Positions 28,661 to 52,273 of a DNA stretch of 64,000 bases are shown one piece after another. The position numbers and the translations under genes were made by a program. Positions within the stretch are counted from its first letter, which is position 1, and every line of letters begins with the position of its first letter. Source of the stretch: Synechococcus sp. SP2 MAG. Its GTDB lineage: Bacteria > Cyanobacteriota > Cyanobacteriia > PCC-6307 > Cyanobiaceae. The stretch covers positions 65,223 to 129,222 of the forward strand of contig JAVBIX010000036.1 of NCBI GenBank assembly GCA_030756895.1, in the 5' to 3' direction. The notes under the pieces were generated by a model. That model searched no databases. It saw only the letters and a list, made by a program, of their open reading frames with translations, and had not been told where the DNA came from.

Positions 28661-28694
28661 ACTAGAGAAAGGCTGTCACCAACACAGCAGTTCT

Positions 28695-29897
28695 CTACCA
28701 ATTTAGGGGAAGAGGCCAGATTTCACGAATGCTTTCCAGCATTTGTTGTCCTCGCTCAGAACGCTCATCAGCGCTGTGGCCCTTGAGCAGGGTGGTCACA
28801 TGCCCCACTTTGCGCCCAGGGATCTCATCTTTTCCGTACCAATGCAAATGCAATGCCTCGATTGAGCGCAGTTTTGAAAGCCGCTCCTCAAGCGGTTCAG
28901 CCTGATCAGCACTGAGACCAAGCAGATTGACCATCAAGGATCCATCGGCAATGAATTCTGGATTAGGGACATCTAGCCCTGCCGCTATACAGAGCTGTTG
29001 ATCAAATTGGCTGCTTGAACAAGCTTCAATTGAAAAATGCCCTGAATTATGCGTTCTAGGGGCTACTTCATTGACAAATAAACCCTCTGCTCCATAGAAA
29101 AACTCCAATGTCATGACTCCCACATAGCTGAGCTTTGTGAGAAGTGAGGCAGCGATGTTGTAGGCCGTTGCTTCAACGAGTTGACTGACTGGTGCAGGTG
29201 CGATGACCCAATCGCAAACTTGATTTTTCTGGTGCGTTTCAGCTAAAGGCAGGCTACGAATACGCCCTTTTGAATCTCGGCTTACAACGAGAGCAAGTTC
29301 CTGTTCGTAAGACACCCAGGCTTCGATTAACCACTCATTGGCATCGACGTTTCGGAGCAACTGTGCCAAGTCATTTAGATCTTCTACAACCCTTGTGCCC
29401 TTCCCGTCGTAACCGCCGTAGGCGGCTTTGGCCATGACGGGAAAGGTCCAACCGCTCGGTAAGGACGGCGATCCAGGATTGAGTTCAGCTAACGAAATCC
29501 AATCTGGACTTGGAATCAAAAGATCATTGAGTAGCCGCCTCTGAGACAACTTGTTGACGAGAGGGACCAGGCTTGCAAGTGATGGAGTGAATTGCACGCC
29601 CTGTCGCTCCAGAGGCATAAGGGCATCGACAGCGACCCATTCGTTTTCGAAAGTGATGCCTACGCAATGCGATGACAGCTCCCTTGTTGCACGAACATCT
29701 GTTGAACCAGCAATCACTAAATCCTTAGCCAGTGAGGCGGCAGGGTCTTCAGCTTTAGAAGCCTGAACCGCAAGAGTCAGACCTCGCGTTTGCGCTGCTT
29801 CTCCGAGCATGAGGGCTAATTGCCCTCCACCGATCACCCCAATTGTGTTGTCAACGTTGGACATCCGTTGCAGATCGATCTGGGTGGGGCTTGTCAT
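28695..29897 (-). CDS. purK: N5-carboxyaminoimidazole ribonucleotide synthase
   Basis: ATP-grasp enzyme of purine synthesis, AIR to N5-CAIR. 400 residues. The N-terminal GIGVIGGGQLALML-type motif is present as TIGVIGGGQLALMLGEAAQTRG, with ATP-grasp segments VMAKAAYGGYDGKGTRVV and FVNEVAPRTHNSGHFSIEA. It lacks nothing obvious. The first ATG gives an 11-residue leader, and ATG 29864 (MSNVDNTIGV) is an equally good start. Upstream is the orphan ABC permease, 27 bases away on the same strand. Confidence 0.93.
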   Translation of the reverse strand: MTSPTQIDLQRMSNVDNTIGVIGGGQLALMLGEAAQTRGLTLAVQASKAEDPAASLAKDLVIAGSTDVRATRELSSHCVGITFENEWVAVDALMPLERQGVQFTPSLASLVPLVNKLSQRRLLNDLLIPSPDWISLAELNPGSPSLPSGWTFPVMAKAAYGGYDGKGTRVVEDLNDLAQLLRNVDANEWLIEAWVSYEQELALVVSRDSKGRIRSLPLAETHQKNQVCDWVIAPAPVSQLVEATAYNIAASLLTKLSYVGVMTLEFFYGAEGLFVNEVAPRTHNSGHFSIEACSSSQFDQQLCIAAGLDVPNPEFIADGSLMVNLLGLSADQAEPLEERLSKLRSIEALHLHWYGKDEIPGRKVGHVTTLLKGHSADERSERGQQMLESIREIWPLPLNW

Positions 29898-37108: not shown

Positions 37109-38086
37109 ATGTCTGCAATCAACACTGAGACAGATCTGGGGATCAGGATCATGAAAGACACTCCCGGTGATCTCGTCGGCGCCATCAACCAGCTTCGAAA
37201 GGATCGAAACGCCATCGTTTTGGCGCACTATTACCAGGAGCCAGAAATACAAGATATTGCTGATTTCATTGGAGATTCATTAGAACTCTCGCGAAAAGCT
37301 GCCAGCACAGATGCGGATGTCATTGTTTTTTGCGGAGTACATTTCATGGCAGAAACGGCAAAAATCTTAAGTCCAGATAAAATTGTTCTCTTACCTGATA
37401 GTGATGCAGGATGCTCACTAGCAGATGATTGTCCAGGCGAAGAATTTGAAGCATTTAGAGCCAACCATCCTGATCATTTTGTTGTAAGTTATATAAATTG
37501 CACAGCTGCAGTTAAAGCACAAAGTGACTTGATATGTACCAGCAGCAACGCGGTTGACCTAGTAAATCAACTTCCGACTGATCAACCTATTTTATTCGCA
37601 CCAGACCAAAATCTGGGACGATGGGTACAAAGACAAAGTGGACGTGAGCTGACATTGTGGCCTGGACGTTGCATCGTTCATGAAACATTTAGCGAAGAAG
37701 CTCTATTGAAACTTAAGCTTCAGCACCCTGATGGAGAGGTGATTGCACATCCTGAGTGCATGGAAAATCTGCTTGACCTAGCTGATTTCATCGGCTCAAC
37801 AAGCAAACTCTTAGCGCATGCTCAGTCAAGTTCAGCAAGTATTTTTATCGTACTAACAGAACCCGGTATACTACACCAAATGCAGAAATTAGTTCCTAAT
37901 AAGACCTTCATCGATGTACCAGGCTTAGATGGATGCAGTTGCAATACATGCCCATACATGCGTTTGAATACACTAGAAAAACTATGGCAGTGCTTAGAAA
38001 CACTTGAGCCTAAGATCGAAATGGATGAAACAATACGAAGAAAAGCCTTGGCACCAATACAAAGGATGCTTGAAATGAGTAAATAA
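37109..38086 (+). CDS. nadA: Quinolinate synthase NadA
   Basis: [4Fe-4S] enzyme of NAD synthesis, iminoaspartate plus DHAP to quinolinate. 325 residues from [10 protein letters not shown]. The cluster cysteines are visible: one in [10 protein letters not shown], one in [14 protein letters not shown] and one in the [12 protein letters not shown] cluster. [14 protein letters not shown] is the substrate-binding motif. An earlier start (37082) exists. The first 130 bases have the GC of upstream genes, and after 37240 the gene is AT-rich, so the gene straddles a compositional boundary. Confidence 0.95.
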
Positions 38087-38501
38087 AGCTCACGGATGAA
38101 GCTCATAGAAAACAGCAAAGTTGTAAATAATTATAGAAGCAAATTTATCAATTATCAAATATAAATGTATAAATAGACTTTTACTGAATCGATAACCTTA
38201 AAATCTTGAATTGGTCAAAAACAAAGCTAAGGAAATAGATATAGGTGGTAATTAGATAAATAAAAATTCTAAACAATAAATAAACAACTTTTTACAAAAT
38301 GTACAGCATATCTCGCGCAATGCAATAAGGTTGATTAAAACATGCTGACAAAGGCCAAACATAATAACAATATCAGTAACCTAATATTGTCTAAAATATA
38401 ATTCATTCGCAAAAACTTGATTCTTGGTCTAAACAAAATAGATTTATAGAGAAAGCTCAAAGAAGACCCACATCAAAGGAAAAGATTCGGCAAAATAAGG
38501 T
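38087..38501. other. AT-rich gene-free stretch before the ligase operon
   Basis: About 415 bases with no credible ORF and no clear hairpin. It probably holds the promoter of the exonuclease gene; no confident -10/-35 pair was chosen. Confidence 0.5.
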
Positions 38502-39479
38502 ATGGCCGTTCTTGAGAGACAAACTGAAGGCTTGTACTGCCCAGCAGCAGACGTATGGATTGATCCAACGCGACCAGTGAAACGAGCATTAATAACCCAT
38601 GCCCATGCAGATCATGCAAGAGCCGGATCTGGGGAATATTGGGCGGTGAATCAATCAGAAGGAGTTTTACGGCAACGGTTAGGGCAAGAAATCAAGCTTC
38701 ACGCCGTGAGCTATGGAGAAACACTCATCATTGGAGAAGCAAAGATCTCATTTCATAGTGCGGGTCATGTTTTGGGAAGTGCTCAGATTCGCATCGAAGT
38801 AGAAGGAGAAGTGTGGCTTGTCACTGGCGACTACAAACGATGCCATGATCCAAGTTGCACACCATTTGAAAACGTTAAGTGTGATGTAATGATCACTGAA
38901 TCAACTTTCGGTTTACCAATCTATCGTTGGAAAACAGGTCACGAAATAGCTAAAGAAATTCATCAGTGGTGGAGTGAAGAGAAAGATCATCCATCATTAT
39001 TATTTTGTTATGCCTTTGGAAAAGCTCAGCGAGTACTTGCCGAGCTCAAAGCACTAGGCATCGATGACGAAATCCTCCTACATGGAGCAGTAGAAACAGT
39101 TACACGACATTATCGTGACGCAGGAATATGCATGGCTAAAACTTGTCCGGTCAGCTCAATCGAACGCAAAGATCCACTGAAGGGAAGATTAATCATTGCA
39201 CCTCCATCTGCATATCGATCATCATGGATGAAACGTTTTAAAGAGCCACAGACAGCTTTCGCGTCTGGATGGATGACAGTGAGAGGAGCTAGACGAAGAC
39301 GCGGCTATGAAAAAGGGTTCGTCTTAAGTGATCATGCTGATTGGCCCGGTCTAATCCAAACAATTAAAGAAAGTGGCGCAAAGCTTGTCTATGTCACACA
39401 TGGTCAAGACGACGTTATTGCTAGATACTTACGTGAGGTGGAAGGAATCGCAGCAGATTCACTGAATACATTAAAATGA
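38502..39479 (+). CDS. Ligase-associated beta-CASP exonuclease
   Basis: Metallo-beta-lactamase fold nuclease of the ligase-associated exonuclease family (distant to mRNA 3'-end nucleases). 325 residues. The metal site is HAHADHARAG, with SAGHVLGSAQI and the beta-CASP elements DYKRCHDPSC and FVLSDHADW. Likely processes DNA ends ahead of the ligase. First of three co-directional genes; the ligase starts 10 bases after its stop. Confidence 0.88.
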   Translation: MAVLERQTEGLYCPAADVWIDPTRPVKRALITHAHADHARAGSGEYWAVNQSEGVLRQRLGQEIKLHAVSYGETLIIGEAKISFHSAGHVLGSAQIRIEVEGEVWLVTGDYKRCHDPSCTPFENVKCDVMITESTFGLPIYRWKTGHEIAKEIHQWWSEEKDHPSLLFCYAFGKAQRVLAELKALGIDDEILLHGAVETVTRHYRDAGICMAKTCPVSSIERKDPLKGRLIIAPPSAYRSSWMKRFKEPQTAFASGWMTVRGARRRRGYEKGFVLSDHADWPGLIQTIKESGAKLVYVTHGQDDVIARYLREVEGIAADSLNTLK

Positions 39480-39489
39480 GGTACAAATA

Positions 39490-41196
39490 ATGCGTCAAGT
39501 CAGTTTTAAGAGTTTCGGAGATTTATTGTCTGAACTTGATGAATGCAATGCAACAAAAAAGAAAATCAGTCTTATCAGTGAATTCATAAAGGGAATAGAC
39601 CCAAGAGATGGTTCATGGATTCTTGCATTACTAATAGGAAATAAACAAAAAAGAGTCATAACAGGAAGACGACTCAGGGAAATCCTACAATCAAACTCAA
39701 AGATACCTGCATGGTTATTTGATGACTGCTTCGCACAAGTAGGAGATTCAGCCGAAACAATAAGTTTATTATGGCCCCAAATAAAACATGAGTATGATAC
39801 AAGCAACCTTGAATGTAGCGAAGATCTTGAATTGGTATTAAATGAGTTAAGGAATTCAAATTCCATTCACTGGTGGATGGAAAGTTTGCTACCAAAACTA
39901 AAAAATTTAACAGATATAGCACAAAAAAATGCAATACTAAAATTATGGAAGAGGATACCAGATTTAGATCATTATTTGGCAAACAAACTGATTACAGGTG
40001 GATTCAGAATTGGCGTTTCAAAAGGAATTGTCGTACAAAGTATCGCACAATCCTATGAACTGGACGAAAGTACAATTTTAGAACGACTCATGGCACCAAT
40101 GGATCCAGATGCATTGTGGTTTCAAACATTAACGCAACCAGCAGAAAGAGATATAACTAATCGAGGAGCTATTCCATATCCATTTTATCTAGCAAGTCCT
40201 GTCCAAATCGAGAAAATAACAGAAACTCCAGAAGCAGATTGGAGATTAGAGTATAAATGGGATGGAATACGAGGTCAATTAATAAAGAGAGAATCAGGGG
40301 CTTATCTGTGGAGTCGGGGAGAAGAATTAATCAATCATACTTTTCCAGAAATTATGCTTATGGCTGACGTACTTCCTAAAGATACGGTATTGGACGGTGA
40401 AATACTGTGCTGGAACAAAGAACAAAATAGGCCGATGCCGTTTGCATCACTACAGCGCAGACTGGGGCGAAAAACAGTAGGTAATAAATTAATGAAAGAA
40501 TGCCCAATAGTATTCATGGCATACGATATCATTGAATACAATGAAGATGATTTGAGGAACAACAAACTAGAAGATCGTATTAAAATACTACAAGCCTTGC
40601 AAACTAATAGCAATCACCCATGCTTTTTATTTCAGCAAAATAAACAATATAAAAAATGGGATGAATTAGAAAGGATTCGAGAAATTTCTGGACACGATGG
40701 AGCTGAAGGTTTAATGATTAAAAAGAAAGACTCATGCTACTTATCTGGGCGTAAAAGAGGACATTGGTGGAAGTACAAGCATGAACCCATGACTCTTGAC
40801 GCAGTTTTAATCTATGCACAAGCTGGGACAGGGAAACGCGCAAATCTGTTTACAGACTACACGTTTGCATTATGGAATGAATCCAATAAGACCTCTAAAG
40901 AAAGAAAGTTAGTAACATTTGCAAAGGCCTATTCAGGACTGAATAATACAGAAGTTGAGCAGTTAGACAAGTGGATTCGCATGAATACGATTGATAGATT
41001 CGGACCAACAAGGGTTGTAGAACAGAAACAAGTCTTTGAAATTGCCTTTGAAGGTGTAATGGAATCTAAGCGACATAAATGCGGACTAGCCGTTCGATTT
41101 CCAAGGATTCATAGATGGAGGATTGATAAGAAAGTAAGTGACGCTGATAATATTGATGAAGCTCGCAGACTTCTGAAAACTGAATCAAAGCTATGA
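39490..41196 (+). CDS. ATP-dependent DNA ligase, ligase-associated type
   Basis: Seals DNA nicks with ATP. 568 residues. An N-terminal helical domain (to about 230) is followed by the nucleotidyltransferase domain with active-site motif EYKWDGIRG, Lys256 being the AMP acceptor. Further motifs are LDGEILCW, MAYDIIEYN, EGLMIKKKDSCYLSGRKRGHWWKYK and an OB-fold tail. It matches the four-gene repair cluster known from proteobacteria and others. Its TGA overlaps the ATG of the 59-codon ORF. Confidence 0.92.
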   Translation: MRQVSFKSFGDLLSELDECNATKKKISLISEFIKGIDPRDGSWILALLIGNKQKRVITGRRLREILQSNSKIPAWLFDDCFAQVGDSAETISLLWPQIKHEYDTSNLECSEDLELVLNELRNSNSIHWWMESLLPKLKNLTDIAQKNAILKLWKRIPDLDHYLANKLITGGFRIGVSKGIVVQSIAQSYELDESTILERLMAPMDPDALWFQTLTQPAERDITNRGAIPYPFYLASPVQIEKITETPEADWRLEYKWDGIRGQLIKRESGAYLWSRGEELINHTFPEIMLMADVLPKDTVLDGEILCWNKEQNRPMPFASLQRRLGRKTVGNKLMKECPIVFMAYDIIEYNEDDLRNNKLEDRIKILQALQTNSNHPCFLFQQNKQYKKWDELERIREISGHDGAEGLMIKKKDSCYLSGRKRGHWWKYKHEPMTLDAVLIYAQAGTGKRANLFTDYTFALWNESNKTSKERKLVTFAKAYSGLNNTEVEQLDKWIRMNTIDRFGPTRVVEQKQVFEIAFEGVMESKRHKCGLAVRFPRIHRWRIDKKVSDADNIDEARRLLKTESKL

Positions 41197-41372
41197 ACAT
41201 TATTGACACTATTAAAAACAGAAGCAAAGAATGTATCCATTCAGCATGGAAAATGAGTGAATGGATTAAATTCGTTCAGTACAATCATGAAAGAATGAAT
41301 GAACTCCTTAATATAATTGAATCAACGATATTACAAAAAGAAAGCAAGAGAATCAATAATGACAAGACCTGA
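41193..41372 (+). CDS. 59-codon coupled ORF between ligase and helicase
   Basis: An ORF of 59 residues, just under a 60-residue cut-off. Its ATG overlaps the ligase stop (ATGA), and its own stop lies 14 bases inside the helicase start. The product is polar, with many Asn, Lys, Glu and Ile, helical over residues 15-50 (SAWKMSEWIKFVQYN then NELLNIIEST), and has no signal or membrane segment. Double coupling in a repair operon argues that it is translated. I do not recognise the family. It might be a partner of the ligase or helicase, or a chance ORF that only carries ribosomes forward. Confidence 0.6.
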   Translation: MNIIDTIKNRSKECIHSAWKMSEWIKFVQYNHERMNELLNIIESTILQKESKRINNDKT

Positions 41373-43851
41373 ACACAAAAAACAGATACTTAAAAATCGA
41401 ATAGATCAACAACTGATACCAATCGAGAACTGGTTTGAGAAACAAGGATGGTCAGCTTCAGCCTTTCAAAAACAAAGCTGGAATGCGTACTTAAGTGGAG
41501 AAAGTGGTCTGATTCAGGTTCCGACAGGATCCGGGAAAACGTATGCGGCAGTCATGGGACCGATTGCAAGGATACTGGCTGATGAAAACCAACAAAGAGG
41601 TCTACGCGTTCTTTATCTCACTCCTTTACGAGCACTCAGTAGGGATTTAAAACTCGCAATTCAGAATCCGATCGAAACCATGCAGTGGCCGATACGTGTA
41701 GGAACAAGGAATGGAGATACAAAATCATCTGAACGCGTCAAGCAACTTAAAAACCCACCGGAGATACTAGTTACAACACCAGAATCACTTTGTGTCATTC
41801 TTAGCAATCGAAAAGCTAAGGACATGATTGGAGAGTTGCATACTGTCATTCTTGATGAATGGCATGAATTAATGGGAAGCAAACGAGGAAGCCAAACTGA
41901 GTTAGCGATTAGTTGGCTAAAGCAACAGCGACCGAATTTACAGATATGGGCTTTAAGTGCCACTATCGGCAATGTTATAGAAGCGACTGACCACGCATTA
42001 GGAATAGATGCAAGTAGTAGAATTGTTATCAATTCATCACCTAGAAGAAAAACCACTATTAGAAGTATTCTGCCAGATTCAATTGATGGATTTCCTTGGG
42101 CTGGTCACCTTGGGCTACGCATGTATGAACAACTGGTATCAAATTTAGATCCTAGAATAAGTACGTTGCTATTTACAAATACACGTAATCAGTCAGAAAG
42201 ATGGCATCAATGCTTACGTTATGCATGCCCCGAAATGGAAAATTCATTAGCGCTACACCATAGTGCAATAGACCGAACAGAAAGAGAAGCAATTGAAGAA
42301 AACATGAAATATGGAAGCATCCGATGGGTAGTCTGTACCAGTTCCTTGGATCTGGGGATTGATTTCCAACCAGTAGAAAAAGTAGTGCAAATAGGTAGCC
42401 CAAAAAATATTGCACGGTTACTACAAAGAGCTGGTAGATCAGCACATTGCCCAGGAGGAGAGTCACAAGTATTATTTATGCCTACAAATGCCTTAGAGCT
42501 TCTTGAACTAAGTGCATTAAGAAGAGGTCTTGAAAATGAACTAATAGAACAAAGGAAACCACCACATAAACCTCTTGATGTATTGCTACAACATCTAACA
42601 ACATTGGCATGTGGACCTGGATTTAATCCTGACGAAACTCTTGAAACAATCCAAAAAACAGCAAGCTTTGCAAGCTTGACAAATGAAGAATGGCAATGGT
42701 GTCTATTATTTCTTGAAAAAGGTGGAGTTTGTTTAAATGCTTATTCACGTTATCGAAAATTAAATTGGAATGCTGCTGAAAACTTATATATAATTAGTGA
42801 TCAATCGTTGGCACGTCTTCACAAGTTTAATATTGGAACAATCACTTCTGCTCCATCAATACGCGTCAAATTTAGTCGGGGCGCTATCCTTGGCCATGTG
42901 GAAGAAAATTTTATTAGTCAGTTAAATCCCAAAGACGTTTTCTTTTTTGCGGGGCGCCAATTAGAGCTCACTAAAATCAAGGATATGACTGCTTATGTAA
43001 AATTAACTACAAGAAAAAGTACAACAGTTCCAGCTTGGGCAGGTGGACAAATGGCGTTGTCGGATCTGTTAACGAAACAATTAAGGGAGGAGGTGTCAAG
43101 AGCTTCTAAGTATATCCTTGATACGCCAGAATTGAAAGCATTAAAACCACTTTTAGATCGTCAGGTTGATTTATCAATGATACCTAATGAGAATGAACTG
43201 CTAATTGAAACATGTGTAAGTAAAGAAGGTCAGCATTTATTTGTCTATCCATTTGAGGGAAGATTTGTTCATGAAGGGCTAGGTTTCCTGTGGGCATCAC
43301 GTTTTACAAATCATAGAAAGAGTACGATTACAGTGTCAGTGAATGACTATGGTTTTGAACTTTTAGCACCAAGGCAATATCCAATGAATGAACTTCTACA
43401 TGAGCTGTTAGAAACTCTATTGAATGATAATCATTTAGAATCAGATCTTGAAAACGCATTGAACATATCAGAACTATGCAAACGTCGCTTTCGTAGTATC
43501 GCGCAAATATCTGGTCTTATGATGCAAGGCTATCCTGGAAACAACAAAAGCAGTGGCCAACTACAAATTAGTGGTTCATTACTATGGGATGTATTTAGCA
43601 AGCATGAACCTCAAAATTTACTTTTAAAACAAGCAAGATACGAAGTTCTCAATGAACAACTTGAATTACCACGACTCCAAAAGGCATTATTTCGCATGAG
43701 AGCTGGTGATATTATCCATAGTGAAATTCCAAGGCCAAGCCCATTAGCATTTCCACTCATGGTAGAGCGGTTACGTTCCAGACTGAGCAATGAATCAATT
43801 TTGGAAAGGGTATCAAGAATGCAAAAAGAAGCCTTAAAATATGAAGGTTAG
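41359..43851 (+). CDS. Ligase-associated DEXH-box helicase (Lhr-like)
   Basis: Superfamily 2 helicase of the Lhr-like ligase-associated family, 830 residues from MTRPEHKK. The first 14 codons of the longer frame lie in the coupled ORF and are not family-like. Walker A is QVPTGSGKTYA, motif II is DEWHELMG (DEXH), motif III LSATIGN, motif VI RAGRSAHCPGG. The C-terminal half matches Lhr-like winged-helix and beta-barrel parts. Likely unwinds or remodels damaged DNA for the operon partners. Third gene of the operon. Confidence 0.92.
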   Translation: MTRPEHKKQILKNRIDQQLIPIENWFEKQGWSASAFQKQSWNAYLSGESGLIQVPTGSGKTYAAVMGPIARILADENQQRGLRVLYLTPLRALSRDLKLAIQNPIETMQWPIRVGTRNGDTKSSERVKQLKNPPEILVTTPESLCVILSNRKAKDMIGELHTVILDEWHELMGSKRGSQTELAISWLKQQRPNLQIWALSATIGNVIEATDHALGIDASSRIVINSSPRRKTTIRSILPDSIDGFPWAGHLGLRMYEQLVSNLDPRISTLLFTNTRNQSERWHQCLRYACPEMENSLALHHSAIDRTEREAIEENMKYGSIRWVVCTSSLDLGIDFQPVEKVVQIGSPKNIARLLQRAGRSAHCPGGESQVLFMPTNALELLELSALRRGLENELIEQRKPPHKPLDVLLQHLTTLACGPGFNPDETLETIQKTASFASLTNEEWQWCLLFLEKGGVCLNAYSRYRKLNWNAAENLYIISDQSLARLHKFNIGTITSAPSIRVKFSRGAILGHVEENFISQLNPKDVFFFAGRQLELTKIKDMTAYVKLTTRKSTTVPAWAGGQMALSDLLTKQLREEVSRASKYILDTPELKALKPLLDRQVDLSMIPNENELLIETCVSKEGQHLFVYPFEGRFVHEGLGFLWASRFTNHRKSTITVSVNDYGFELLAPRQYPMNELLHELLETLLNDNHLESDLENALNISELCKRRFRSIAQISGLMMQGYPGNNKSSGQLQISGSLLWDVFSKHEPQNLLLKQARYEVLNEQLELPRLQKALFRMRAGDIIHSEIPRPSPLAFPLMVERLRSRLSNESILERVSRMQKEALKYEG

Positions 43852-44017
43852 TGTGTGTGCCTTATCAACTATTTCAAATGTGAAGAATGGAATCTCAATT
43901 TCTTGTAAACAGTTTAGGAAACTCTGAAATCAATATTAACCGAGGTAATCGGAAATAAAGGTAAAGACCACACATGGGCTTGCATAATTCCTAAACTAAT
44001 TTGGTAGAGGAGCTTAA

Positions 44018-44500
44018 ATGCCTAAGGAAGAAAGAGTTTCTGATTACCCGAGGCCACCAATGATTGAACTAGTGAATGGTCCTGTATCGATTCGTATTGC
44101 CGATGAAATCATCGCTGAGGATACTCGCTACATTCGTGTATGCGAAACATTTCACCCTCCAACGATCTATCTTCATCAAAGATCTTTTAGGAAGGAAGCG
44201 CTTCAGCAGACCTCTGGACAACCTTCGTATTGTGAATGGAAGGGTGTTGCGGAGTACTGGTCATTAAGAAAGGCTGATGGCACCGATGTGAGGCCTCATG
44301 CTGGATGGAGTTATCCAAAACCCACAAGTCGGTTTGCACTCCTTGCTGATTGGATTGGTCTCTATCCGCGATCAGTTGATGCATGTATCTTAGAGGGTGA
44401 AGAAGTTATACCACAACCTGGTTCTTTTTATGGTGGATGGATAACAAGTTGGACAATAGGACCATTTAAAGGTGATCCAAACCATCCTGAATTAATTTAA
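44018..44500 (+). CDS. DUF427 family protein
   Basis: A 160-residue soluble protein that matches DUF427: VSIRIADEIIAEDTRYIRVCETFHPPTIYL and CEWKGVAEYWSL with SRFALLADWIGLYP. Function is unknown; the family has a small beta-rich fold. A strong ribosome site (GAGGAG) sits 7 bases before the ATG. Its stop overlaps the ATG of the fibrillin gene by one base. Confidence 0.85.
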   Translation: MPKEERVSDYPRPPMIELVNGPVSIRIADEIIAEDTRYIRVCETFHPPTIYLHQRSFRKEALQQTSGQPSYCEWKGVAEYWSLRKADGTDVRPHAGWSYPKPTSRFALLADWIGLYPRSVDACILEGEEVIPQPGSFYGGWITSWTIGPFKGDPNHPELI

Positions 44501-45054
44501 TGAATAGTAAGGAGCAATTAATTGAGTATCTTCGACTCGATCCCAAAAACACCCAAATTCCATCTTTGATTACTGAGATTGAGTCAAAACAAGTAGTAGA
44601 TTTGCAATCAGATGTAACTTTGTTGAAGGGAGTATGGGAGTTGAGATGGAGTAGTTCTACACAGCCATGGCTCAAACAAGCCTCATGGCTAGAAAATCTT
44701 CAGGCTCTTGATCCTGATCAACAAAAAGGTGTCAATCTTTTACGGCTAAGTGGAACAGTTGGATCCTTAGCAATGATTGCTGTTGAGGCGAAGTTATCAG
44801 TCAATAGCTCAAATCAAATTGGCGTACAATTCGAGCGAGGAGGCTGGTTAGGTCCATCTCTTCGGAATGGATGGAGACCTAAAATACTATCTAAAATTAA
44901 TCAATCGTTTCCTGCTTGGTTAGATATCACATTTCTAGACGAAACACTTAGGATTTGTCGAGGGAATGCTGGAACATGCTTTGCGTTGCTAAAGAGACCT
45001 GACTTAGATATCACTGACTGGATTCCTGCTTCCCCTGAAAAACTGAGTGAATAG
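44500..45054 (+). CDS. PAP/fibrillin family protein
   Basis: A 184-residue protein with fibrillin features: an LLKGVWELRWSSS strand-rich start and an end with LDITFLDETLRICRGNAGTCFALLKR. In cyanobacteria and plastids fibrillins bind lipids and protect thylakoids in stress. The ATG overlaps the DUF427 stop (TAATG), indicating coupling. Confidence 0.82.
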   Translation: MNSKEQLIEYLRLDPKNTQIPSLITEIESKQVVDLQSDVTLLKGVWELRWSSSTQPWLKQASWLENLQALDPDQQKGVNLLRLSGTVGSLAMIAVEAKLSVNSSNQIGVQFERGGWLGPSLRNGWRPKILSKINQSFPAWLDITFLDETLRICRGNAGTCFALLKRPDLDITDWIPASPEKLSE

Positions 45055-45788
45055 TTGGGACGGAGTGGGGAACATTCCCGCTACGAGCTACACCTAAATC
45101 CGTTCCCCAGCATTTAACCTATAGGACTGGTTTCAGCAATCAGGGAAGCAGCTTCGCTTGTCACTCTGCTCGTAGCCGGTGGACTTTGAAAGTCCCGCGA
45201 CCTTGCCTTACAAACTGAAAGCCAAATCGTTGCTCCTCATGGTTCCATCCGTGGAGTCGTCCATTTGCCATACCGAGACAGCGAGCAAGGACCTTGGTGC
45301 TTACTAAGCATTCGTTATCTGCGATCTCTTAAAGTTGTCGTTGAACTGAAACCTAATCAGTACAGCCCTTGCAATTGTAGAAACCTGCCTAGCGTCTTGA
45401 TAGGGGGAAGACATCAAAGTATCTGAATGGATACCCTTTTCAATCATTGAAGTAATGGGAATAAGTACGATGAACTCTATGAATGTTTTATTAAACAACA
45501 AAAGAATAAGATTACAACATTAGATGAATAATTTATTTTGGATAAAAGCTCCTATGTAGAAATAAAAACATTATTAATCAGATTCATGAATAATATTACT
45601 ACCAACAACCACAGCATTCAAATGCGACATCATGTATAAGGCTGAAACTAATTTGGATTAATAAATGCTTTTGGTTAATTCATAGAAAAACTCTTTAGCA
45701 CTGAATTCATTTTGCATAAAGACTTATTTTATAGAATCAGCGCAGTTCAAAACTGAGCACAAAGGGTGACTATCATGTATAATAAAAT
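45055..45788. other. Long spacer with a GC-richer structured block
   Basis: 734 bases without an ATG-started gene. Bases 45060-45300 are GC-richer than the rest. They hold a 9-bp inverted repeat, GCTACGAGC (45080-45088) with GCTCGTAGC (45168-45176), and a small hairpin GGACTT-tga-AAGTCC shortly after it. A 78-codon frame open after that hairpin has no start codon. The remainder is plain AT-rich sequence. Confidence 0.5.
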
Positions 45789-46322
45789 ATGAGAAAAAAC
45801 ATGATGAATCTTAGATCATTCCTATTAGCCTTATTATTAATAATCATTTCAGTGACAACTTCAGCCTATACAGATAAAATAATTGATTATCAAAAAATTG
45901 GGATTGAAAAACTTGAAATAGAGAATTTCTCTGGAGCTATTATTGATTTTACTAAAGCAATTGCAAACAATCCAAATGATGCTGCTTCTTATAACTACCG
46001 TGGAGTATCAAAAGCAAAAAAAGGCGACTTTGATGGCTCTATCATTGACTACAACAAATCATTAGAACTAGACCCAAAACAAATTGAAACTTATAATAAT
46101 CGTGGTATTGCAAAAGCTAGAACTGGTGATATCAATGGATCAATTCTAGATTTTGATGCGGCAATTGAAATAAATCCTAATATTGCCAATACATATTTTA
46201 ACCATGGTATGTCAATGGATATGTCTGGTGACCTTGTAACTGCATGTGCAGATTGGGAACGCGCTATGGAGCTTGGGGACAAAAACTCAACACAGTTTAT
46301 ATCTAAAAACTGTTCTTCATAA
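45789..46322 (+). CDS. TPR-repeat protein with signal peptide
   Basis: A 177-residue secreted or lumenal protein. The signal peptide is basic then hydrophobic (RSFLLALLLIIISVTTSA). Three to four tetratricopeptide repeats follow from about residue 30, each with the pattern of YNYRGVSKAKKGDFDGSI and YNNRGIAKARTGDINGS. TPRs hold protein partners; in cyanobacteria they often aid photosystem assembly or pili. No catalytic site. Confidence 0.85.
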   Translation: MRKNMMNLRSFLLALLLIIISVTTSAYTDKIIDYQKIGIEKLEIENFSGAIIDFTKAIANNPNDAASYNYRGVSKAKKGDFDGSIIDYNKSLELDPKQIETYNNRGIAKARTGDINGSILDFDAAIEINPNIANTYFNHGMSMDMSGDLVTACADWERAMELGDKNSTQFISKNCSS

Positions 46323-47067
46323 TAACAATAATGGATAAAAGAGTAGAATTAATAGACACAAATAATCTGTTAATACTCAAAACATACGGATATCTATCAA
46401 ACAGCTAAAAACCTAAAGATATAATCCAATAGGCTTTTATAGCTTTAACAAATAATTATATAAATACAAGTTTATACTACTAATAACGCTAAGATACACA
46501 GTTAATTTAATCATATGAAGCAAACACTCTTTAAGTGTCAATTCACCTTACTCAATAATTGTAGATCTTTTGAATAGAACGAGACCTAATCTCTTGCGTT
46601 AATCTGTACTTCTAGAATCAAGCATAGAGTCGTATGAAAATTCTTTATCTCGAATTCATGGCATCAACCATATTATTTATTGATACATAAACCACAACTT
46701 ATACATCTTTAATTGTTTCGTTCCTGAAAAGAAAATATATTTCTCAATAAAACTAAAAAGATTACGGCAACTATTAAATGAATATTTGTTGTCCGAGCAG
46801 TAATGAAAGTATAAAAATAATTTGGACAAAGAAGATAACATTGCTACAGAAAATAAGATGAATTTACAAACCAAAATCTTATTTCCATTTAAGGCTAATC
46901 AAATCAAAAATACTCAATTTTAGGCTATTTCCCATCTTAAGAGCACCAAAACATATAGATACGAGGCACAGATAGGTAACGGTGACCCATACCTGCAGGA
47001 TAGGTGTTTCAGCAGTTAAAGGATAATGAGAAAATTCAGGTAATCCAAAATAGATGCACTGCTATGG
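46323..47067. other. AT-rich gene-free stretch
   Basis: About 745 bases of AT-rich sequence between convergent genes. A 65-codon frame on the minus strand (46677-46874) looks random. No repeat, hairpin with T-tract or RNA gene was recognised. Confidence 0.5.
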
Positions 47068-47973
47068 CTAACTATTTAACGTTTGCTGATAAACTTTTAT
47101 AGAATCATGAAGTCCATTTTCTTTCAACCTCAAAAGGAAGGACTTGCCTTTTGTAGGGAGGCCTTCGGGATGATTGAGTTCATATCCAGTTACTTCTTCA
47201 AGACCGATGGATGCTAGCTCAAAAAAAGAAGTACTAATTAAGAGTGTTGCTATTTCTGCATTTTGAGTGTTATTAAGTGAATCGAGTTCCGCAGCCTGAT
47301 CCACTAAATCCATACGCATTGGGAACTTGGCAAACTTAACCAGCATTTGAAAATCGTCTTTTGATTGTAACCAGGGACGGCATTCATATTCATAAGCCAG
47401 GATTAGCTCTCCAACAGGAGGACAGAATTCTTTTTCATCTGAGTCGTCAATGTTATTATTACTTTTCCTGTCTTCGGCAATAATCTTGAGTAGTTCATTG
47501 GAAAAGGAATTGTATGACAAGGTGAAAAATCCTTCACGTAGAGATTCAACTGAGGCATCAGTTGCTCCGTCACAAAATTCGTCGATGAGTGGTAAAAGCT
47601 TTCTAAGCAGTTCTTGTGCCTGGATTGTAGTTACAGAAGTGCTTGTAAAAGAACGTGGAGTGTTAATGCCATCAATGTTGTTGGCAGAGCGCGAGACAAG
47701 CCACTGACTAGGTGCAATGGTGAAATCTGATGGGACATTGCCAAAACCTTTGCAATTGCTTAGAGCTTCCAATGCCAAATCGGCAGACTTGTAGCCTGCA
47801 GCCTCCGCCTTTAGCTCCAAAGCACTCTTATCTTGCAACGACTTTTCAATTATTTTCACAACGGTTGAAAGATCTGGATGGACGCCTTCAGCGCCCAGTT
47901 GAATAGCCAATGACCTCAACGTTTCGAGCTCTGAATCAACTCTACAAATTTGCTGCTTGAACTCTTCGAGCAA
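47068..47973 (-). CDS. Unrecognised 301-residue protein
   Basis: Soluble, acidic, helix-rich protein, no signal peptide or membrane helix. The N-terminal part (LRSLAIQLGAEGVHPDL, LQDKSALELKAEAAGYK) looks like short helical repeats; the rest is a second helical domain (LLRKLLPLIDEFCDGATD). I do not recognise it. Its length and balanced composition support a real gene of the island. Confidence 0.7.
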   Translation of the reverse strand: MLEEFKQQICRVDSELETLRSLAIQLGAEGVHPDLSTVVKIIEKSLQDKSALELKAEAAGYKSADLALEALSNCKGFGNVPSDFTIAPSQWLVSRSANNIDGINTPRSFTSTSVTTIQAQELLRKLLPLIDEFCDGATDASVESLREGFFTLSYNSFSNELLKIIAEDRKSNNNIDDSDEKEFCPPVGELILAYEYECRPWLQSKDDFQMLVKFAKFPMRMDLVDQAAELDSLNNTQNAEIATLLISTSFFELASIGLEEVTGYELNHPEGLPTKGKSFLLRLKENGLHDSIKVYQQTLNS

Positions 47974-48319
47974 TGGTTCGCCTTCTTACTTCATAATAGT
48001 AATAGAGAGAATTGCCTTTTGCATAATGTAAGTGATGAAGACTATTTTAAAAGAGCTATGGACGGTAGCGTGCTTATCACTCTGTCTTGCTACGGATGAG
48101 TCTGAGATGAGACGGCTGTCTGCCGATACAGCCCGTATAAACACCTACGACCAGATCATTAAGTTTGGTGTATAATCTTCATATATCGACACATTTAACT
48201 GTGATGGGCGATTGGTTTGCCATTTCTGTTCTGTCTGGGTTACCTCTGAAGATAGAAAAGAGTGGATGTGATGGCAGAACCCTCAACTCTAAATCATTAA
48301 AAGTGGACAGCGTTAATTC
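47974..48319. other. Spacer with a candidate promoter
   Basis: A TATAAT hexamer at 48171-48176 could be a -10 box for the coupled small ORFs at 48204 and 48320. The -35 partner is weak. Bases 48060-48090 resemble part of the structured block near 45.16 kb (GCTT-a/g-TCACTCTG shared). Confidence 0.4.
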
Positions 48320-48323
48320 ATGA
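48204..48323 (+). CDS. Possible 39-codon ORF coupled to the next gene
   Basis: Starts ATG 28 bases after a TATAAT-like box, encodes a mildly hydrophobic start (GDWFAISVLSGLPLK) and polar tail. Its TGA overlaps the ATG of the 71-residue ORF (ATGA). The overlap suggests coupling, but length makes it uncertain. Confidence 0.35.
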   Translation: MGDWFAISVLSGLPLKIEKSGCDGRTLNSKSLKVDSVNS

Positions 48324-48535
48324 CTATTGATCAGTGCTGCAGACGTCAACAAGCAATTGCTGACAGGATTTTTATGGATTTTAAATACACTAAAGCTGGA
48401 TCAGATGAACAGCTTAGGGCACTTGAAACTCTGCATTCATTAATTAGCATATGGGCAACTTACATTATCAATGATGAATGGTTGCATAATGAGAGTTTCT
48501 CACTGAAGGTAGCTGCGCATTCAAGCCATTATTAA
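48320..48535 (+). CDS. Unrecognised 71-residue protein
   Basis: Small soluble helical protein (RQQAIADRIFMDFKYTKAGSDEQLRALE then HSLISIWATYI). No motif recognised. Its start overlaps the upstream 39-codon ORF by 4 bases. Followed by 350 bases of empty AT-rich DNA. Confidence 0.5.
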   Translation: MTIDQCCRRQQAIADRIFMDFKYTKAGSDEQLRALETLHSLISIWATYIINDEWLHNESFSLKVAAHSSHY

Positions 48536-48889
48536 TCTTACTCACTTGCGCCCCAAAGCTATATCATTTTATCGCTAATTAACCCTGTTACATAAAGAAT
48601 AAATTCATTTACATCTAATTAATCACATACACTCTTATTATAGATGTAAGACAATATCTCTGCCTGCCTCTTTTTTCTTTAAGCTTATTGTGTTAGATAC
48701 ATTGTTAATTTATTAAAGTTTAACATCGGAGCGGAATTCTTACCTTTGCATTAAATGTAGATAATTTATTTTTATATGAAAAAATTATCCATTTGAGCAG
48801 CCAACGCTATTAGTAACAATTCTCTTGATTTCTATAAGTTTTTTGGTTACAACCTGTTTATGATTTTATCTTTTTAATTGTTTAAATAG
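48536..48889. other. AT-rich gene-free stretch
   Basis: About 354 bases, no ORF, repeat or RNA recognised. Confidence 0.5.
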
Positions 48890-49144
48890 TTACGTATAAC
48901 TTAGAGTTTTAATACTAAGTACAAAAATAGCAGGCACTAAAGTGATTAGATTTGCAATTAAAACTGGGCTATCACCTACCATCCATCCGTAGATTGACCA
49001 GAACATCACACCTGTAGTAAATAGCAAATACATTCGAAATGAGATGGATCGAGTATCTCTACTTTTAAGTGTTTTGACTGCTTGAGGGAAGAAGCTGACT
49101 GTCGTTAAAGTCGCGGCAACGTAGCCAATCAGGTCAGCATTCAT
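48890..49144 (-). CDS. SemiSWEET-type sugar transporter
   Basis: An 84-residue protein with three membrane helices, one PQ-loop repeat, the unit of SemiSWEET (MtN3-like) transporters that dimerise to a sugar channel. Signatures are LTTVSFFPQAVKTLKSRD with the Pro-Gln motif and SISFRMYLLFTTGVMFW. Substrate is unknown, probably a mono- or disaccharide. Start ATG is followed directly by the first helix. Confidence 0.88.
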   Translation of the reverse strand: MNADLIGYVAATLTTVSFFPQAVKTLKSRDTRSISFRMYLLFTTGVMFWSIYGWMVGDSPVLIANLITLVPAIFVLSIKTLSYT

Positions 49145-49255
49145 CTAGCAAATGGTATGGAACGATAATTCTATCCGAGTTTCAGAAGAGTCGTCTTAGA
49201 CTAGATTTAGAGGCAAATAAGAATAAACTATAGAAATATAATATAAAAACTCTGT

Positions 49256-49732
49256 TTATTCAGTCTTATCCACTTGTCTTCCGTCATTAGAAGGTGGTGA
49301 GACCAAAAGCAAGTCGGCCCTATACATACCCATTTGAACAATTAGCATCTTTCGTGGGGATGCATTGAAGCCATCCTTTGCAATATTTATTGCATTGAGA
49401 AGGTCATCAATATCACCTAAAATATCATTTTGAGATAATTGCTTGATCAAAGAAAGTTGATCAAAAAATTTCTTACTATTGACGTGATCTTTTTGAATCA
49501 TTTGTATTCTTGCATCTTCTGATCCAATCTCTATAGCATTGACAAGATATTCCTTAAGAAGTTGTTTTGACATTTCCAGAGGTATATCAATATGACTTGT
49601 TAAACCCCAAAGTGATGTCTCAAACAAATCCCCATCTTTGTTGATTACGATACAAGGTGTATCAAGAGTTAACAGTGATTGATCTCTCAGCTGAATCCAA
49701 TGATTCTCAATGTCATTCCAACTTTTAGACAT
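49256..49732 (-). CDS. Unrecognised 158-residue protein
   Basis: Soluble acidic protein, no signal, no membrane segment. Region DTPCIVINKDGDLFETSLWG and a helical middle (LSLIKQLSQNDILGDIDDLL). I do not recognise it. Coding is supported by length and composition only. Confidence 0.6.
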   Translation of the reverse strand: MSKSWNDIENHWIQLRDQSLLTLDTPCIVINKDGDLFETSLWGLTSHIDIPLEMSKQLLKEYLVNAIEIGSEDARIQMIQKDHVNSKKFFDQLSLIKQLSQNDILGDIDDLLNAINIAKDGFNASPRKMLIVQMGMYRADLLLVSPPSNDGRQVDKTE

Positions 49733-50150
49733 TACAATTAGTACTCAAAAACATTAAAATGGGGAGAAGAAAAATTAAAATTACTTTGTAGAATTTTTTT
49801 GAATTTATTCGTGTTTAATGGAATTGTGAACACAAATTATAGACTTTAAAATACTATCCAAATGAGTCACTTGATCAGTCATAATGTTCACTTATATTTT
49901 CTACTATAGCTTGTAGATTAGCAATTGTTTTCAAATATTTGATTCCCCACACAAAGCTGATCGTTTGTCTTCTTTTATGCGGCTTTACTGATTTCAATCC
50001 TAAGTATAATAAAGAGAGGTGTGATTAGCGACTAAATTATTGATAGTTTTTAATCTTGAGTTCGCACTCAAATTGTATTAGAAAGTTCATAAGCACCTGT
50101 CATGCAGGGCATACGTGGGTCTACTATAGACAAGCAGCTTCATTCAATCT
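49733..50150. other. AT-rich gene-free stretch
   Basis: 418 bases, nothing recognised apart from scattered poly-A/T tracts. Confidence 0.5.
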
Positions 50151-50483
50151 GTGATCTTTCCATACTTAGTCGTATTCATAGTTGTCTCACTCTTTTTTAA
50201 GCCGTTCTGGAATATTTATCGGCTAATAATTCATTGGGCATTTTTACTTGTATTATCACCTTGGATTGTGGGAAAAGCTTTAAGTGCACGCTGGGCTGAA
50301 GACGATTATGGGAATGGACCACGACTTATTGCTCTTCCTATAGCATTGGGAGGTTATTGGTTAATATATGGCTCTTATGTACATCCTGAATATTCATTAT
50401 TTCCATTATTCATTTATTACTTTGTAGCATGGCCAGCATTTCGCCATAGTGATGCTTGGGAAAAACTGAATAGTAAAAATTGA
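50151..50483 (+). CDS. Small membrane protein, unrecognised
   Basis: A 110-residue protein starting at GTG with three likely membrane helices (PYLVVFIVVSLFF, WAFLLVLSPWIVG, ALPIALGGYWLIYGSY) and a soluble tail. No known family recognised. Confidence 0.6.
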   Translation: MIFPYLVVFIVVSLFFKPFWNIYRLIIHWAFLLVLSPWIVGKALSARWAEDDYGNGPRLIALPIALGGYWLIYGSYVHPEYSLFPLFIYYFVAWPAFRHSDAWEKLNSKN

Positions 50484-50647
50484 ATACCAAACAGTCCATA
50501 AGTTTTGACTAATAAATCCGTCAAGAATAGAAATAAACAATACACAGTCGTCAATTGACGATGTTAGGTCCTATAACCCAATAAAAAACATAATTTAGAC
50601 TAGTTAGAACTAATGCCTTATTTTAACGATATTATTTAATATATGTT

Positions 50648-51271
50648 TTAATCTGTTGTATTGCCAATATCCTTATGAGTCATTTCTTCTGGGAGCCGAA
50701 AGCCTTTACTTGACTGAAGCTGCTTCAATGACGTAGCGATTGAGAGATTGGTCTGACCCTCACGTTCACCAATAAGATTAACTTCCTCAACCTCGATAGG
50801 CTGAACAGTATCACTTTACATTGTAAGGAGTGGTTCAAGTTTCTGCAATAAGAACAGTCGCTTAGCATCGCTACCTGAACGTTTTAGTGATTCAACAAGA
50901 TCACGCTCCTCTTGCATAAGACGCAAGGTCACCATGCCTTCTTTACCGACTAAGTCGTCATTGCGGATAAGTATGTCTGCATCGCGGCGGCTCATCAAAC
51001 GCAACAGATGCGATGCCGCCCATCCCATCCCTAGACCCATTGAACTAGCAACAAACAAGGAAAGAAATCCACTGTCACTTGGAGTAAGCAACGACATCAG
51101 AAGTCCGCACAACCCAAACCCACAGAGGCCAAACGACCAGAACGGGGTAGTGAACAACAGGCTTTGGCTTCCGCCCACACCATCATCATCAAAACCAACG
51201 CCATCGTTATCAAGAGAAAGGGCAATCAAAACACCTCCTGCTACAAGGCAAAAGCAATAGGTCCAGATCAT
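50648..51271 (-). pseudogene. NfeD-like membrane protein with in-frame stop
   Basis: The frame from 51271 runs 151 codons to a TAA at 50816-50818, then stays open in the same frame for 55 more codons, ending TAA at 50648. The N-terminal half has two to three membrane helices (LVAGGVLIALSLD, FWSFGLCGFGLCGLLMSLL), and a soluble part with LVGKEGMVTLRL resembles the OB-fold seen in NfeD-like proteins of flotillin clusters. The downstream codons (PIEVEEVNLIGEREGQ) also look coding. A nonsense mutation (for example AAA to TAA) would turn one 207-codon gene into a shortened form. The 151-residue product may still be made. Confidence 0.6.
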
Positions 51272-51481
51272 CGATATTCAGCCTCAGGGTGTTCATAATG
51301 GTGGTCATGATCAATTGTGACCCCGTTACTCGATCACGTCTACTGCCAACTGTCGAGATTATTTAGCAGGTTTGAACGAACGTGCAAACACATTTCTGAG
51401 TCAAAATGAAACCTCAAATATTAATCTATGGGTTCACTAGGCTCAATATTCATAGTATAATCTTTTGATCAATGATATTAA

Positions 51482-52273
51482 ATGAAAGTTCAAGAATCAG
51501 CAGCAGTTCAAAATTGGAAAGCGTTCTGGAATTTCCATCTTGGAAATTGGCATGGACGTTGGACTCGATATCAACCAAATGGTGAACTCTCAGAAACCTT
51601 CTTAAGTTCTAGATCATTTCACTCGGATCCCGAAAAAAAGAATATCAGCCAAATTAATCAGTATTTTTACACTGATGGGCAACATGGTGAGAAACGTTGG
51701 AGCTACAGCCTTGAAGATCACTGCAAAGAAAATGGCTTCATGCATCCCGCTAGCGACTACATGAGAGGGTTGGCTTTTCAGGATGGATCTGCTGCATGGC
51801 TCGTTCCCGAGGCGATACCAGAGCAATATTTTCCTATGGAACTTTTTCTTGCTAACAAAGATATCCGCTTCAGCGTTGGCATGCTCTATGGCTTGAATGG
51901 CGAACTTCAAAGAACAGCTTGCATACGAGAAATGCGTCTTGGCCTTAATCATTCAATCTGGTCGGACGCAGTTGAACTAATTCCGGCATGGAATGTCGGG
52001 AACCAGTGGCGGGGGATCACTCAGATCATCGCTGCGGATTTGGCCCGATCGAGGATCCAAGATGCTCTCTATATGGAAACACAATTTGATAATAAAGAAT
52101 ACTTCTTTCCTGATAATATTATTCTACGTTGTCCAGCAAAGCTCACTCTCAACCAACAATTTACAATTGATGCGATTTGGCTTGAATCTAGAAATAAGTT
52201 GAAAACAATAAGGGCATCTTATGGAGTCGATTCAAAGCTAATTGATGTTAAGCTTCAAAATTTATCACGTTAA
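51482..52273 (+). CDS. DUF3598 protein
   Basis: A 263-residue protein of the lipocalin-like DUF3598 family of cyanobacteria and plastids. The N-terminus has WKAFWNFHLGNWHGRWTRY and the central part ENGFMHPASDYMRG. Function unknown, possibly linked to pigment or chlorophyll-protein assembly. Monocistronic, convergent with the J-domain gene. Confidence 0.82.
   Translation: MKVQESAAVQNWKAFWNFHLGNWHGRWTRYQPNGELSETFLSSRSFHSDPEKKNISQINQYFYTDGQHGEKRWSYSLEDHCKENGFMHPASDYMRGLAFQDGSAAWLVPEAIPEQYFPMELFLANKDIRFSVGMLYGLNGELQRTACIREMRLGLNHSIWSDAVELIPAWNVGNQWRGITQIIAADLARSRIQDALYMETQFDNKEYFFPDNIILRCPAKLTLNQQFTIDAIWLESRNKLKTIRASYGVDSKLIDVKLQNLSR

What the first reader, a model, noticed from the sequence alone, without database searches (positions are those of the whole stretch)
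41193..41372. Unannotated 59-codon ORF coupled inside a ligase-associated repair operon
The ORF's ATG overlaps the ligase stop (ATGA) and its stop lies 14 bases inside the helicase start, so it is coupled on both sides. It falls one residue below common length cut-offs, so it would be overlooked. The known family set is exonuclease, ligase, helicase and a phosphoesterase (PdeM); a fifth small subunit would be new. It could also be only a ribosome relay.
Basis: partly seen in the sequence, partly recalled or inferred. Interest (0 to 1): 0.7.

Follow-up and report, generated by a model that had tools for sequence, protein, structure and literature searches.

The report
Ribosome-relay ORF between ligase and helicase
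A 59-codon reading frame between two DNA-repair genes of a cyanobacterium is most likely not a new protein subunit but a bridge that hands translating ribosomes from the first gene to the second; relatives have different, unrelated-looking bridges in the same place.

Summary
No convincing homologue was found in the collections searched, its codon usage is not gene-like, and the six relatives with a similar ligase-helicase spacer carry unlike sequence there. A fifth conserved repair subunit is not supported.

In most other family loci read, ligase and helicase overlap by 4 or 1 nt. In one well-supported clade of seven loci they are 148-206 nt apart, in AT-rich DNA that mostly does not align between lineages. 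In five of the seven, back-to-back ATG ORFs still lead from the ligase stop to the helicase start (one ORF in three loci, two ATGA-linked ORFs in two). Shuffled spacers predict 0.16-0.72 of seven. The next spacer in the same genomes is bridged in 0 of 6, other 80-250-nt spacers in 3 of 158. Architecture persists while sequence does not, which suggests selection for coupling, not for a peptide.

Against: two clade members and one more distant genome have unbridged long spacers, n is small, thresholds were set after seeing the data, translation is unproven. A variant of known coupling ORFs.

The parts
38502..39479 (+). ligase-associated exonuclease gene
   Evidence: TIGR04122 466 bits, above cut-off
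39490..41196 (+). ATP-dependent DNA ligase gene (TIGR04120, 'cisplatin damage response')
   Evidence: TIGR04120 550 bits, above cut-off
41193..41196 (+). ATGA: ligase stop overlapping ORF59 start
   Evidence: sequence
41193..41372 (+). ORF59, the proposed ribosome-relay ORF (59 codons plus stop)
   Evidence: no convincing homologue; no codon-usage signal; bridging ORFs recur at this junction in relatives
41359..41372 (+). 14-nt overlap of the ORF59 end with the helicase start
   Evidence: sequence; alternative in-frame TTG start at 41317
41359..43851 (+). ligase-associated DEXH helicase gene (TIGR04121)
   Evidence: TIGR04121 1067 bits, above cut-off
43852..44017 (+). helicase-DUF427 spacer (166 nt, GC 0.34), used as matched control; not bridged

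Best explanation
ORF59 is a relay (bridging) ORF for translational coupling. Shown: the ligase stop and the ORF59 start share ATGA, and the ORF59 stop ends at the 14th base of the helicase. Inferred: a ribosome that finishes the ligase reinitiates at once on ORF59, is carried across a 162-nt AT-rich spacer too long for direct coupling, and terminates on top of the helicase start, where it reinitiates. The peptide is a by-product; selection keeps the frame open and its ends in place, not the residues. The ancestral state was probably a direct 4-nt ligase/helicase overlap, with the spacer arising once at the base of one clade (inferred).
For: 1) Among 31 loci read first, 15 have helicase directly after ligase without a long spacer: 13 have a start giving a 4-nt overlap (two of these also a GTG at +2), one a 1-nt overlap, one (G009) a 13-codon ORF between. 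In 40 further family stretches, 18 had both genes in line: 13 with a 4- or 1-nt overlap. 2) Seven loci with spacers of 148-206 nt form one side of a 100/100 branch. In 5 of 7 an ATG-ORF chain spans the spacer: 59 codons (window), 55 (L055), 67 (G020), 19+38 (G007), 33+14 (G014); the inner joins of G007 and G014 are ATGA. Shuffles expect 0.16-0.50 of 7 (P 4e-9 to 6e-6), or 0.28-0.72 with the first start kept (P 4e-7 to 7e-5); without the window and one of the sister pair, 4 of 5, P 2e-8 to 2e-4. Counting G035 as an eighth, unbridged locus: P 1e-8 to 9e-5. 3) Controls: helicase-to-DUF427 spacer, same genomes, 83-186 nt, GC 0.31-0.37: 0 of 6; nadA-to-exonuclease: 0 of 7. Of 99 same-strand spacers of 80-250 nt, 6 bridged: 4 of the 6 ligase-helicase ones and 2 copies of one conserved 56-aa gene. 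AT-rich G146/G167: 1 of 65. 4) No codon-usage signal: z 0.8; 28 real 59-codon pieces mean 3.4, minimum 1.5; the 56-aa gene 2.6-2.7. 5) Relay peptides are unlike each other (best relay pair p 0.076; 45 pairs tested); spacers align clearly only within G013/G030. 6) G009: a 13-codon ORF, ATGA-coupled to the ligase, leads to the helicase. 7) In E. coli a 38-nt gap cut reinitiation by 80-90% in two pairs and abolished it in a third (PMC10666635, abstract and section 6).
Against: G013 and G030, a sister pair, have the spacer but no ATG chain. In the wider family G035 has a GC-rich 152-nt spacer without a chain, G308 starts at +47 or +65, and G087 at +17 or later. So coupling is not kept everywhere. 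The window's own case is the loosest: a 14-nt overlap rather than 4, and 10-24% of shuffles do as well; with a 6-nt end tolerance it fails. Helicase starts are predicted; in G000 an upstream TTG (41317) is possible. Thresholds were set after seeing the loci; with GTG/TTG starts and 15-nt slack 6 of 7 are bridged against 1.67 expected. Lineages are not fully independent (G020 and G014 are sisters). Short spacers (30-80 nt) are bridged in 6-10 of 119 depending on tolerance, and in an early run 2 of 17 spacers of 250-400 nt were. AlphaFold2 gives ORF59 one confident 56-residue helix (pLDDT 97, single sequence); heptad pattern p 0.055. No expression data.
Confidence: 0.65

Rival explanations
1. 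ORF59 encodes a real, fast-evolving or lineage-specific small protein of the ligase complex; its relatives in other genomes have diverged beyond recognition.
For: Bridging ORFs recur at the same place in 5 of 7 loci. AlphaFold2 predicts one long helix for ORF59, pLDDT 97. Heptad bias p 0.055.
Against: No peptide similarity among the relay ORFs although flanking genes are 72-83% identical in DNA outside the sister pair. No codon-usage signal. In two genomes the bridge is two ORFs in different frames, and in two it is absent. A real 56-aa gene is 50 of 56 residues identical between two of the same genomes. L055's ORF folds poorly (pLDDT 67).
Confidence: 0.15
2. Chance: an open frame in an AT-rich spacer that happens to start in the ligase ATGA; no function.
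For: For the window alone, 10-24% of shuffles with the ligase end kept do as well. G013, G030 and G035 have long spacers without a bridge.
Against: Bridging in 5 of 7 loci against 0.16-0.72 expected, 5 of 8 with G035; matched spacers 0 of 6; other 80-250-nt spacers 2 of 93 and 1 of 65.
Confidence: 0.16
3. ORF59 is a fragment related to the C-terminal helix of Psb29/Thf1.
For: The G031 Psb29 tail matches over 56 residues, 33% identity, E 0.002 for one genome. With G031 left out, 13 of 1000 shuffles score as well on a Psb29 profile, and 1 of 500 on best pairwise score.
Against: Found as the best hit of a 60-genome search, so E is about 0.1 overall. No NCBIfam hit at E up to 10. G000's own Psb29 aligns only over 23 residues. 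No DNA similarity (141 of 300 shuffles as good), and the four other relay peptides tested show nothing.
Confidence: 0.03

Closest known systems
Short upstream ORFs that 'deliver' ribosomes to a coupled gene (reviewed in PMC12548453; passages read)
   Same: A short ORF whose proposed sole role is to bring a ribosome to the next start; the peptide itself is not needed.
   Different: Here it sits between two operon genes and takes over ribosomes from an upstream gene's stop; two-ORF chains occur; the architecture recurs in several lineages without sequence conservation.
Mycobacterial interspersed repetitive units (MIRUs; as described in PMC12548453)
   Different: The G000 spacer is single-copy in its genome, and spacers of relatives are mostly unlike each other; no repeat family seen.
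iraD short upstream ORF in E. coli (PMC5574718; search listing only)
   Same: Downstream gene translated by coupling to a short ORF.
   Different: There the short upstream ORF mediates repression by CsrA; here the ORF bridges two operon genes.
Synthetic 'nonfunctional ORF' translation booster (PMC13255528; abstract read)
   Same: A nonsense-peptide ORF next to a start boosts the downstream gene.
   Different: Engineered, carries a strong internal RBS; here no clear Shine-Dalgarno before the helicase start.

Membership tests
Ligase-associated repair operon, as a fifth conserved subunit | Recognisable homologue at the same place in related operons | tested here: not met
   No similarity to the ORFs of the relatives' spacers; only itself plus weak hits in 60 genomes
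Ligase-associated repair operon, as a fifth conserved subunit | Coding signature (codon usage) | tested here: not met
   z 0.8, frame 0 not the best frame; real pieces mean 3.4, minimum 1.5
Ligase-associated repair operon, as a fifth conserved subunit | Purifying selection between close strains | not testable with these tools
   one genome per species held; no alignable orthologue
Translational-coupling relay ORF | Start overlaps or abuts the upstream stop | tested here: met
   ATGA 41193-41196
Translational-coupling relay ORF | Stop at or within about 15 nt of the downstream start | tested here: met
   14-nt overlap; looser than the canonical 4 nt; fails a 6-nt tolerance
Translational-coupling relay ORF | Open-frame bridge kept across lineages more than chance and more than other spacers | tested here: met
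   5 of 7 against 0.16-0.72; controls 0 of 6, 2 of 93, 1 of 65; two of the seven, and G035 outside the clade, fail
Translational-coupling relay ORF | Downstream translation depends on translation of the ORF | not testable with these tools
   needs reporter or ribosome-profiling data
MIRU-type mobile bridging element | Repeated element in the genome | tested here: not met
   spacer found once in G000; in G007 its spacer is single-copy apart from a 16-nt match
Psb29/Thf1 (TIGR03060, PF11264) | Family HMM match | tested here: not met
   no NCBIfam family at E up to 10; no PF11264 at E up to 1

The most novel reading that the evidence does not exclude
Selection maintains content-free ORFs as hand-over bridges: as the spacer DNA turns over, most lineages of this clade keep an unbroken chain of start-stop contacts from ligase to helicase, sometimes through two successive ORFs (19+38 and 33+14 codons) and without clear Shine-Dalgarno sites. 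Many 'orphan' small ORFs in operons could then be bridges rather than genes.
Probability: 0.47. Interest if true: 0.65.

Novelty: new variant of a known kind. Interest (0 to 1): 0.46.

Why it matters
It gives a natural, comparative test of whether terminating ribosomes can cross a gap by scanning or need an ORF to carry them: seven orthologous junctions in one clade, five bridged and two not. It also warns that position-conserved, coupled small ORFs are not necessarily protein genes, and offers a way to tell: frame architecture kept, sequence and codon usage not kept.

Tried and rejected
Fifth subunit: rejected for lack of homologues, codon signal and peptide similarity. N-terminal extension of the helicase: all seven bridging ORFs of the five bridged loci are in a frame other than the helicase's. 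Structured RNA element: folding z-scores of six spacers are -1.9 (window), 0.2, -0.6, -0.2, 1.0, 0.6, and Rfam has nothing there at gathering thresholds. Own promoter or terminator in the spacer: one 10/12 promoter-like match at 41203-41232 (16 in the region, shuffles mean 19.6) and no terminator-like site there; not supported, not excluded. Protection against Rho polarity: no Rho over the cut-off in G000 (two weak hits, 24.5 and 23.1 bits). MIRU-like repeat: rejected. Psb29 fragment: see rivals. Shine-Dalgarno comparison: weak matches everywhere, uninformative. DUF553 (E 0.12) and phrog_1871 (E 0.056) are treated as chance.

Dropped or redone: misread minus-strand loci and was redone. Global spacer identities printed are inflated by cheap gaps and not used. 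In the 40-stretch survey 1 gave no ligase match and 21 no in-line helicase; they are not counted. In one search one exonuclease-ligase junction had no ATG start; at the 9-10-nt exonuclease-ligase gaps the rule was met trivially in 1 of 6 (a 4-codon ORF). The genome-contig scan returned one locus. For G030 and G013 I set the helicase start at an ATG inside the homology, because no upstream start (G030) or only a TTG at +102 (G013) exists. My searches found no paper describing a bridging ORF in this operon; three papers were opened (abstract, passages or one section), the rest seen as listings.

Full report
OBSERVATION. The ORF is real as a sequence feature: 41193-41372, 59 codons, ATGA overlap with the ligase stop, 14-nt overlap with the helicase ATG at 41359. 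Neighbouring genes are the ligase-associated exonuclease, ligase and helicase by NCBIfam models above cut-off. The fourth family member, PdeM, lies on another contig. Downstream comes a DUF427 gene (PF04248).

IS IT A PROTEIN GENE? A search of 60 genomes (its own and relatives) found the peptide itself once; the next best match was E 0.002 (G031), discussed below, and 10 further matches had E 0.08-0.85. Phage records gave no match, viral contigs gave no relative, and Pfam, NCBIfam and PHROGs gave no significant family. A codon-usage score trained on operon genes gives ORF59 z 0.8, and its own frame is not the best of three. Of 28 real 59-codon pieces (which are part of the training set) the mean is 3.4 and the minimum 1.5. 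A conserved 56-aa gene found in the same genomes scores 2.6-2.7.

WHAT DO RELATIVES HAVE? The genus holds 31 genomes, 28 with a helicase match. I first read 31 loci around the ligase: 30 from the family search and one contig of a MAG named bacterium TMED88 (L055; by its gene content probably mis-binned, my inference). In 15, helicase follows ligase without a long spacer: 13 have a start giving a 4-nt overlap (ATG, GTG or TTG; two of these also a GTG at +2), one a 1-nt overlap, and one (G009) is special, see below. In 9 no helicase lies within the 1.5-kb flank. In 7 there is a long spacer: G000 (window), G007, G030, G013, G020, G014 and L055. The seven form one side of a branch with 100/100 support (the tool warns about long branches and biased composition). 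They share the order nadA-exonuclease-ligase-helicase, and DUF427 follows in the six whose sequence reaches that far. In 40 further family stretches, 18 had ligase and helicase in line: 13 with a 4- or 1-nt overlap, one with GTG at +2 or -7 (G076), one with a two-gene insert (G100), and three with unbridged gaps: G087 (+17 or later), G308 (+47 or +65) and G035 (152 nt, GC 0.71). Three genomes of genus g41 (G146, G119, G167) overlap by 4 nt.

THE BRIDGES. In five of the seven clade spacers, ATG ORFs placed head to tail lead from the ligase stop to the helicase start: window, one ORF of 59 codons; L055, one of 55 whose stop overlaps the helicase ATG as ATGA; G020, one of 67 starting right after the ligase TAA and ending just before the helicase ATG; G007, a 19-codon ORF, ATGA, a 38-codon ORF, ATGA, helicase; G014, 33 codons, ATGA, 14 codons, then the helicase a few nt on. 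The helicase ATG used is the only upstream ATG candidate in these loci; G020 and the window also have a TTG. G030 and G013, 95% alike over the last 900 nt of the ligase, have no ATG chain.

STATISTICS. Rule: each start within d nt of the previous stop, last stop within 15 nt of the helicase start, ATG only. With d = 6, 10 and 15, 5 of 7 loci pass each time; 4000 dinucleotide shuffles per locus expect 0.16, 0.28 and 0.50 (P 4e-9, 1e-7, 6e-6). Keeping the first start codon: 0.28, 0.48 and 0.72 (P 4e-7, 6e-6, 7e-5). Without the window and with the sister pair counted once: 4 of 5, P between 2e-8 and 2e-4. Counting G035 as an eighth, unbridged locus: P between 1e-8 and 9e-5. With an end tolerance of 6 nt the window fails and 4 of 7 pass (0.06 expected); with GTG and TTG allowed expectations rise to 0.20-1.67 for 4-6 observed. 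I set these rules after looking at the loci.

CONTROLS. In the same genomes the next intergenic spacer, helicase to DUF427 (83-186 nt, GC 0.31-0.37), is bridged in 0 of 6, and nadA to exonuclease (221-415 nt) in 0 of 7. Among 99 same-strand spacers of 80-250 nt in 1.53 Mb sampled from these genomes with a simple gene caller, 6 are bridged: 4 of the 6 ligase-helicase pairs and 2 of 93 others, the latter being orthologous copies of one conserved 56-aa gene. In 0.8 Mb of two AT-rich relatives 1 of 65 is bridged (2 of 65 with 15-nt slack). Shorter spacers, 30-80 nt, are bridged in 6 to 10 of 119 depending on tolerance; an early, smaller run gave 2 of 17 for 250-400 nt, not inspected. Fisher tests give 6e-5 (4/6 against 2/93) and 1e-6 (5/7 against 3/158), ignoring relatedness.

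SEQUENCE TURNOVER. Relay peptides show no significant similarity (45 pairs tested, two control rows included; the only clear match is the control gene with its orthologue; best relay pair p 0.076). Spacers align clearly only between G013 and G030; 4 of the other 20 pairs have p 0.02-0.08, a slight excess that could be chance or faint common origin. Flanking genes are 72-83% identical in DNA outside that pair. So the frame architecture stays while the sequence turns over.

SUPPORTING ODDITY. In G009, whose close relative G029 has the helicase behind another gene with a hydrophobic C-terminus, the ligase lies next to the helicase. A 13-codon ORF, ATGA-coupled to the ligase and ending like that other gene, leads to the helicase. 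In these loci no ATG, GTG or TTG precedes the homology in frame, and a CTG overlapping the upstream stop (CTGA) is the likely start (inference).

MECHANISM. In E. coli pairs, widening the gap to 38 nt cut reinitiation by 80-90% in two pairs and abolished it in the third; the authors conclude that coupling needs overlaps or very short distances (PMC10666635, abstract and section 6). A 162-nt gap would therefore break the ancestral coupling unless an ORF carries the ribosome across. The review PMC12548453 (passages) describes short ORFs proposed to act only as ribosome deliverers, and MIRUs whose internal ORF keeps coupling at the insertion site. The relay fits that kind but is single-copy and not conserved in sequence. 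Translation, reinitiation and any effect on the helicase are inferred.

EVIDENCE THE OTHER WAY. AlphaFold2, from the single sequence, makes ORF59 one helix with pLDDT 97, L055's ORF only 67; a lone helix is weak evidence for a folded protein. Heptad bias p 0.055. A 56-residue similarity to the tail of G031 Psb29 (E 0.002 in one of 60 genomes) survives partly when G031 is left out (13 of 1000 profile shuffles, 1 of 500 pairwise) but shows no DNA similarity and is absent from the four other bridge peptides tested. I treat it as probable chance between helical sequences, not excluded. Unbridged spacers in G013, G030 and G035 show that the bridge is dispensable in some lineages.

VERDICT. Observation confirmed; the subunit reading is not supported; the relay reading is favoured at about 0.65. 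It is a new variant of a known kind, of moderate interest because the orthologous set makes the scanning-versus-bridge question testable.

Noticed in passing
window 38000-52000: GC falls to 0.34-0.41 against 0.43-0.54 in the rest of the window; ligases of the spacer clade have GC 0.37-0.39 while sampled parts of their genomes have 0.53-0.57 and the other ligases read 0.55-0.67.
   Followed up: partly
L049-L054, helicase starts: Helicase lacks an upstream ATG/GTG/TTG; a CTG overlapping the upstream stop (CTGA) looks like the start, in five loci behind a gene with a hydrophobic C-terminus and in G009 (L054) behind a 13-codon ORF.
   Followed up: partly
L073 (G100): A two-gene insert that looks like a VapB-VapC toxin-antitoxin pair (my reading, no HMM run) lies between ligase and helicase; the helicase TTG overlaps the insert's last stop.
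   Followed up: no
L114 about 1924-2094 and L150 about 12580-12750: A 56-aa ORF, 50 of 56 residues identical, bridging two genes in G007 and G000; the G007 copy has no significant Pfam family. Served as positive control for a true small gene.
   Followed up: partly
window 41235-41266: A 9-bp hairpin stem inside ORF59 (folding z -1.9 for the spacer); the five relatives' spacers folded gave z between -0.6 and 1.0.
   Followed up: no
window 22745-23386: psb29/thf1 gene (TIGR03060), converted from G000:C30:87967-88608.
   Followed up: yes
window 28509-28696 (-) and 54875-55020 (-): 6S RNA and a cobalamin riboswitch by Rfam.
   Followed up: no
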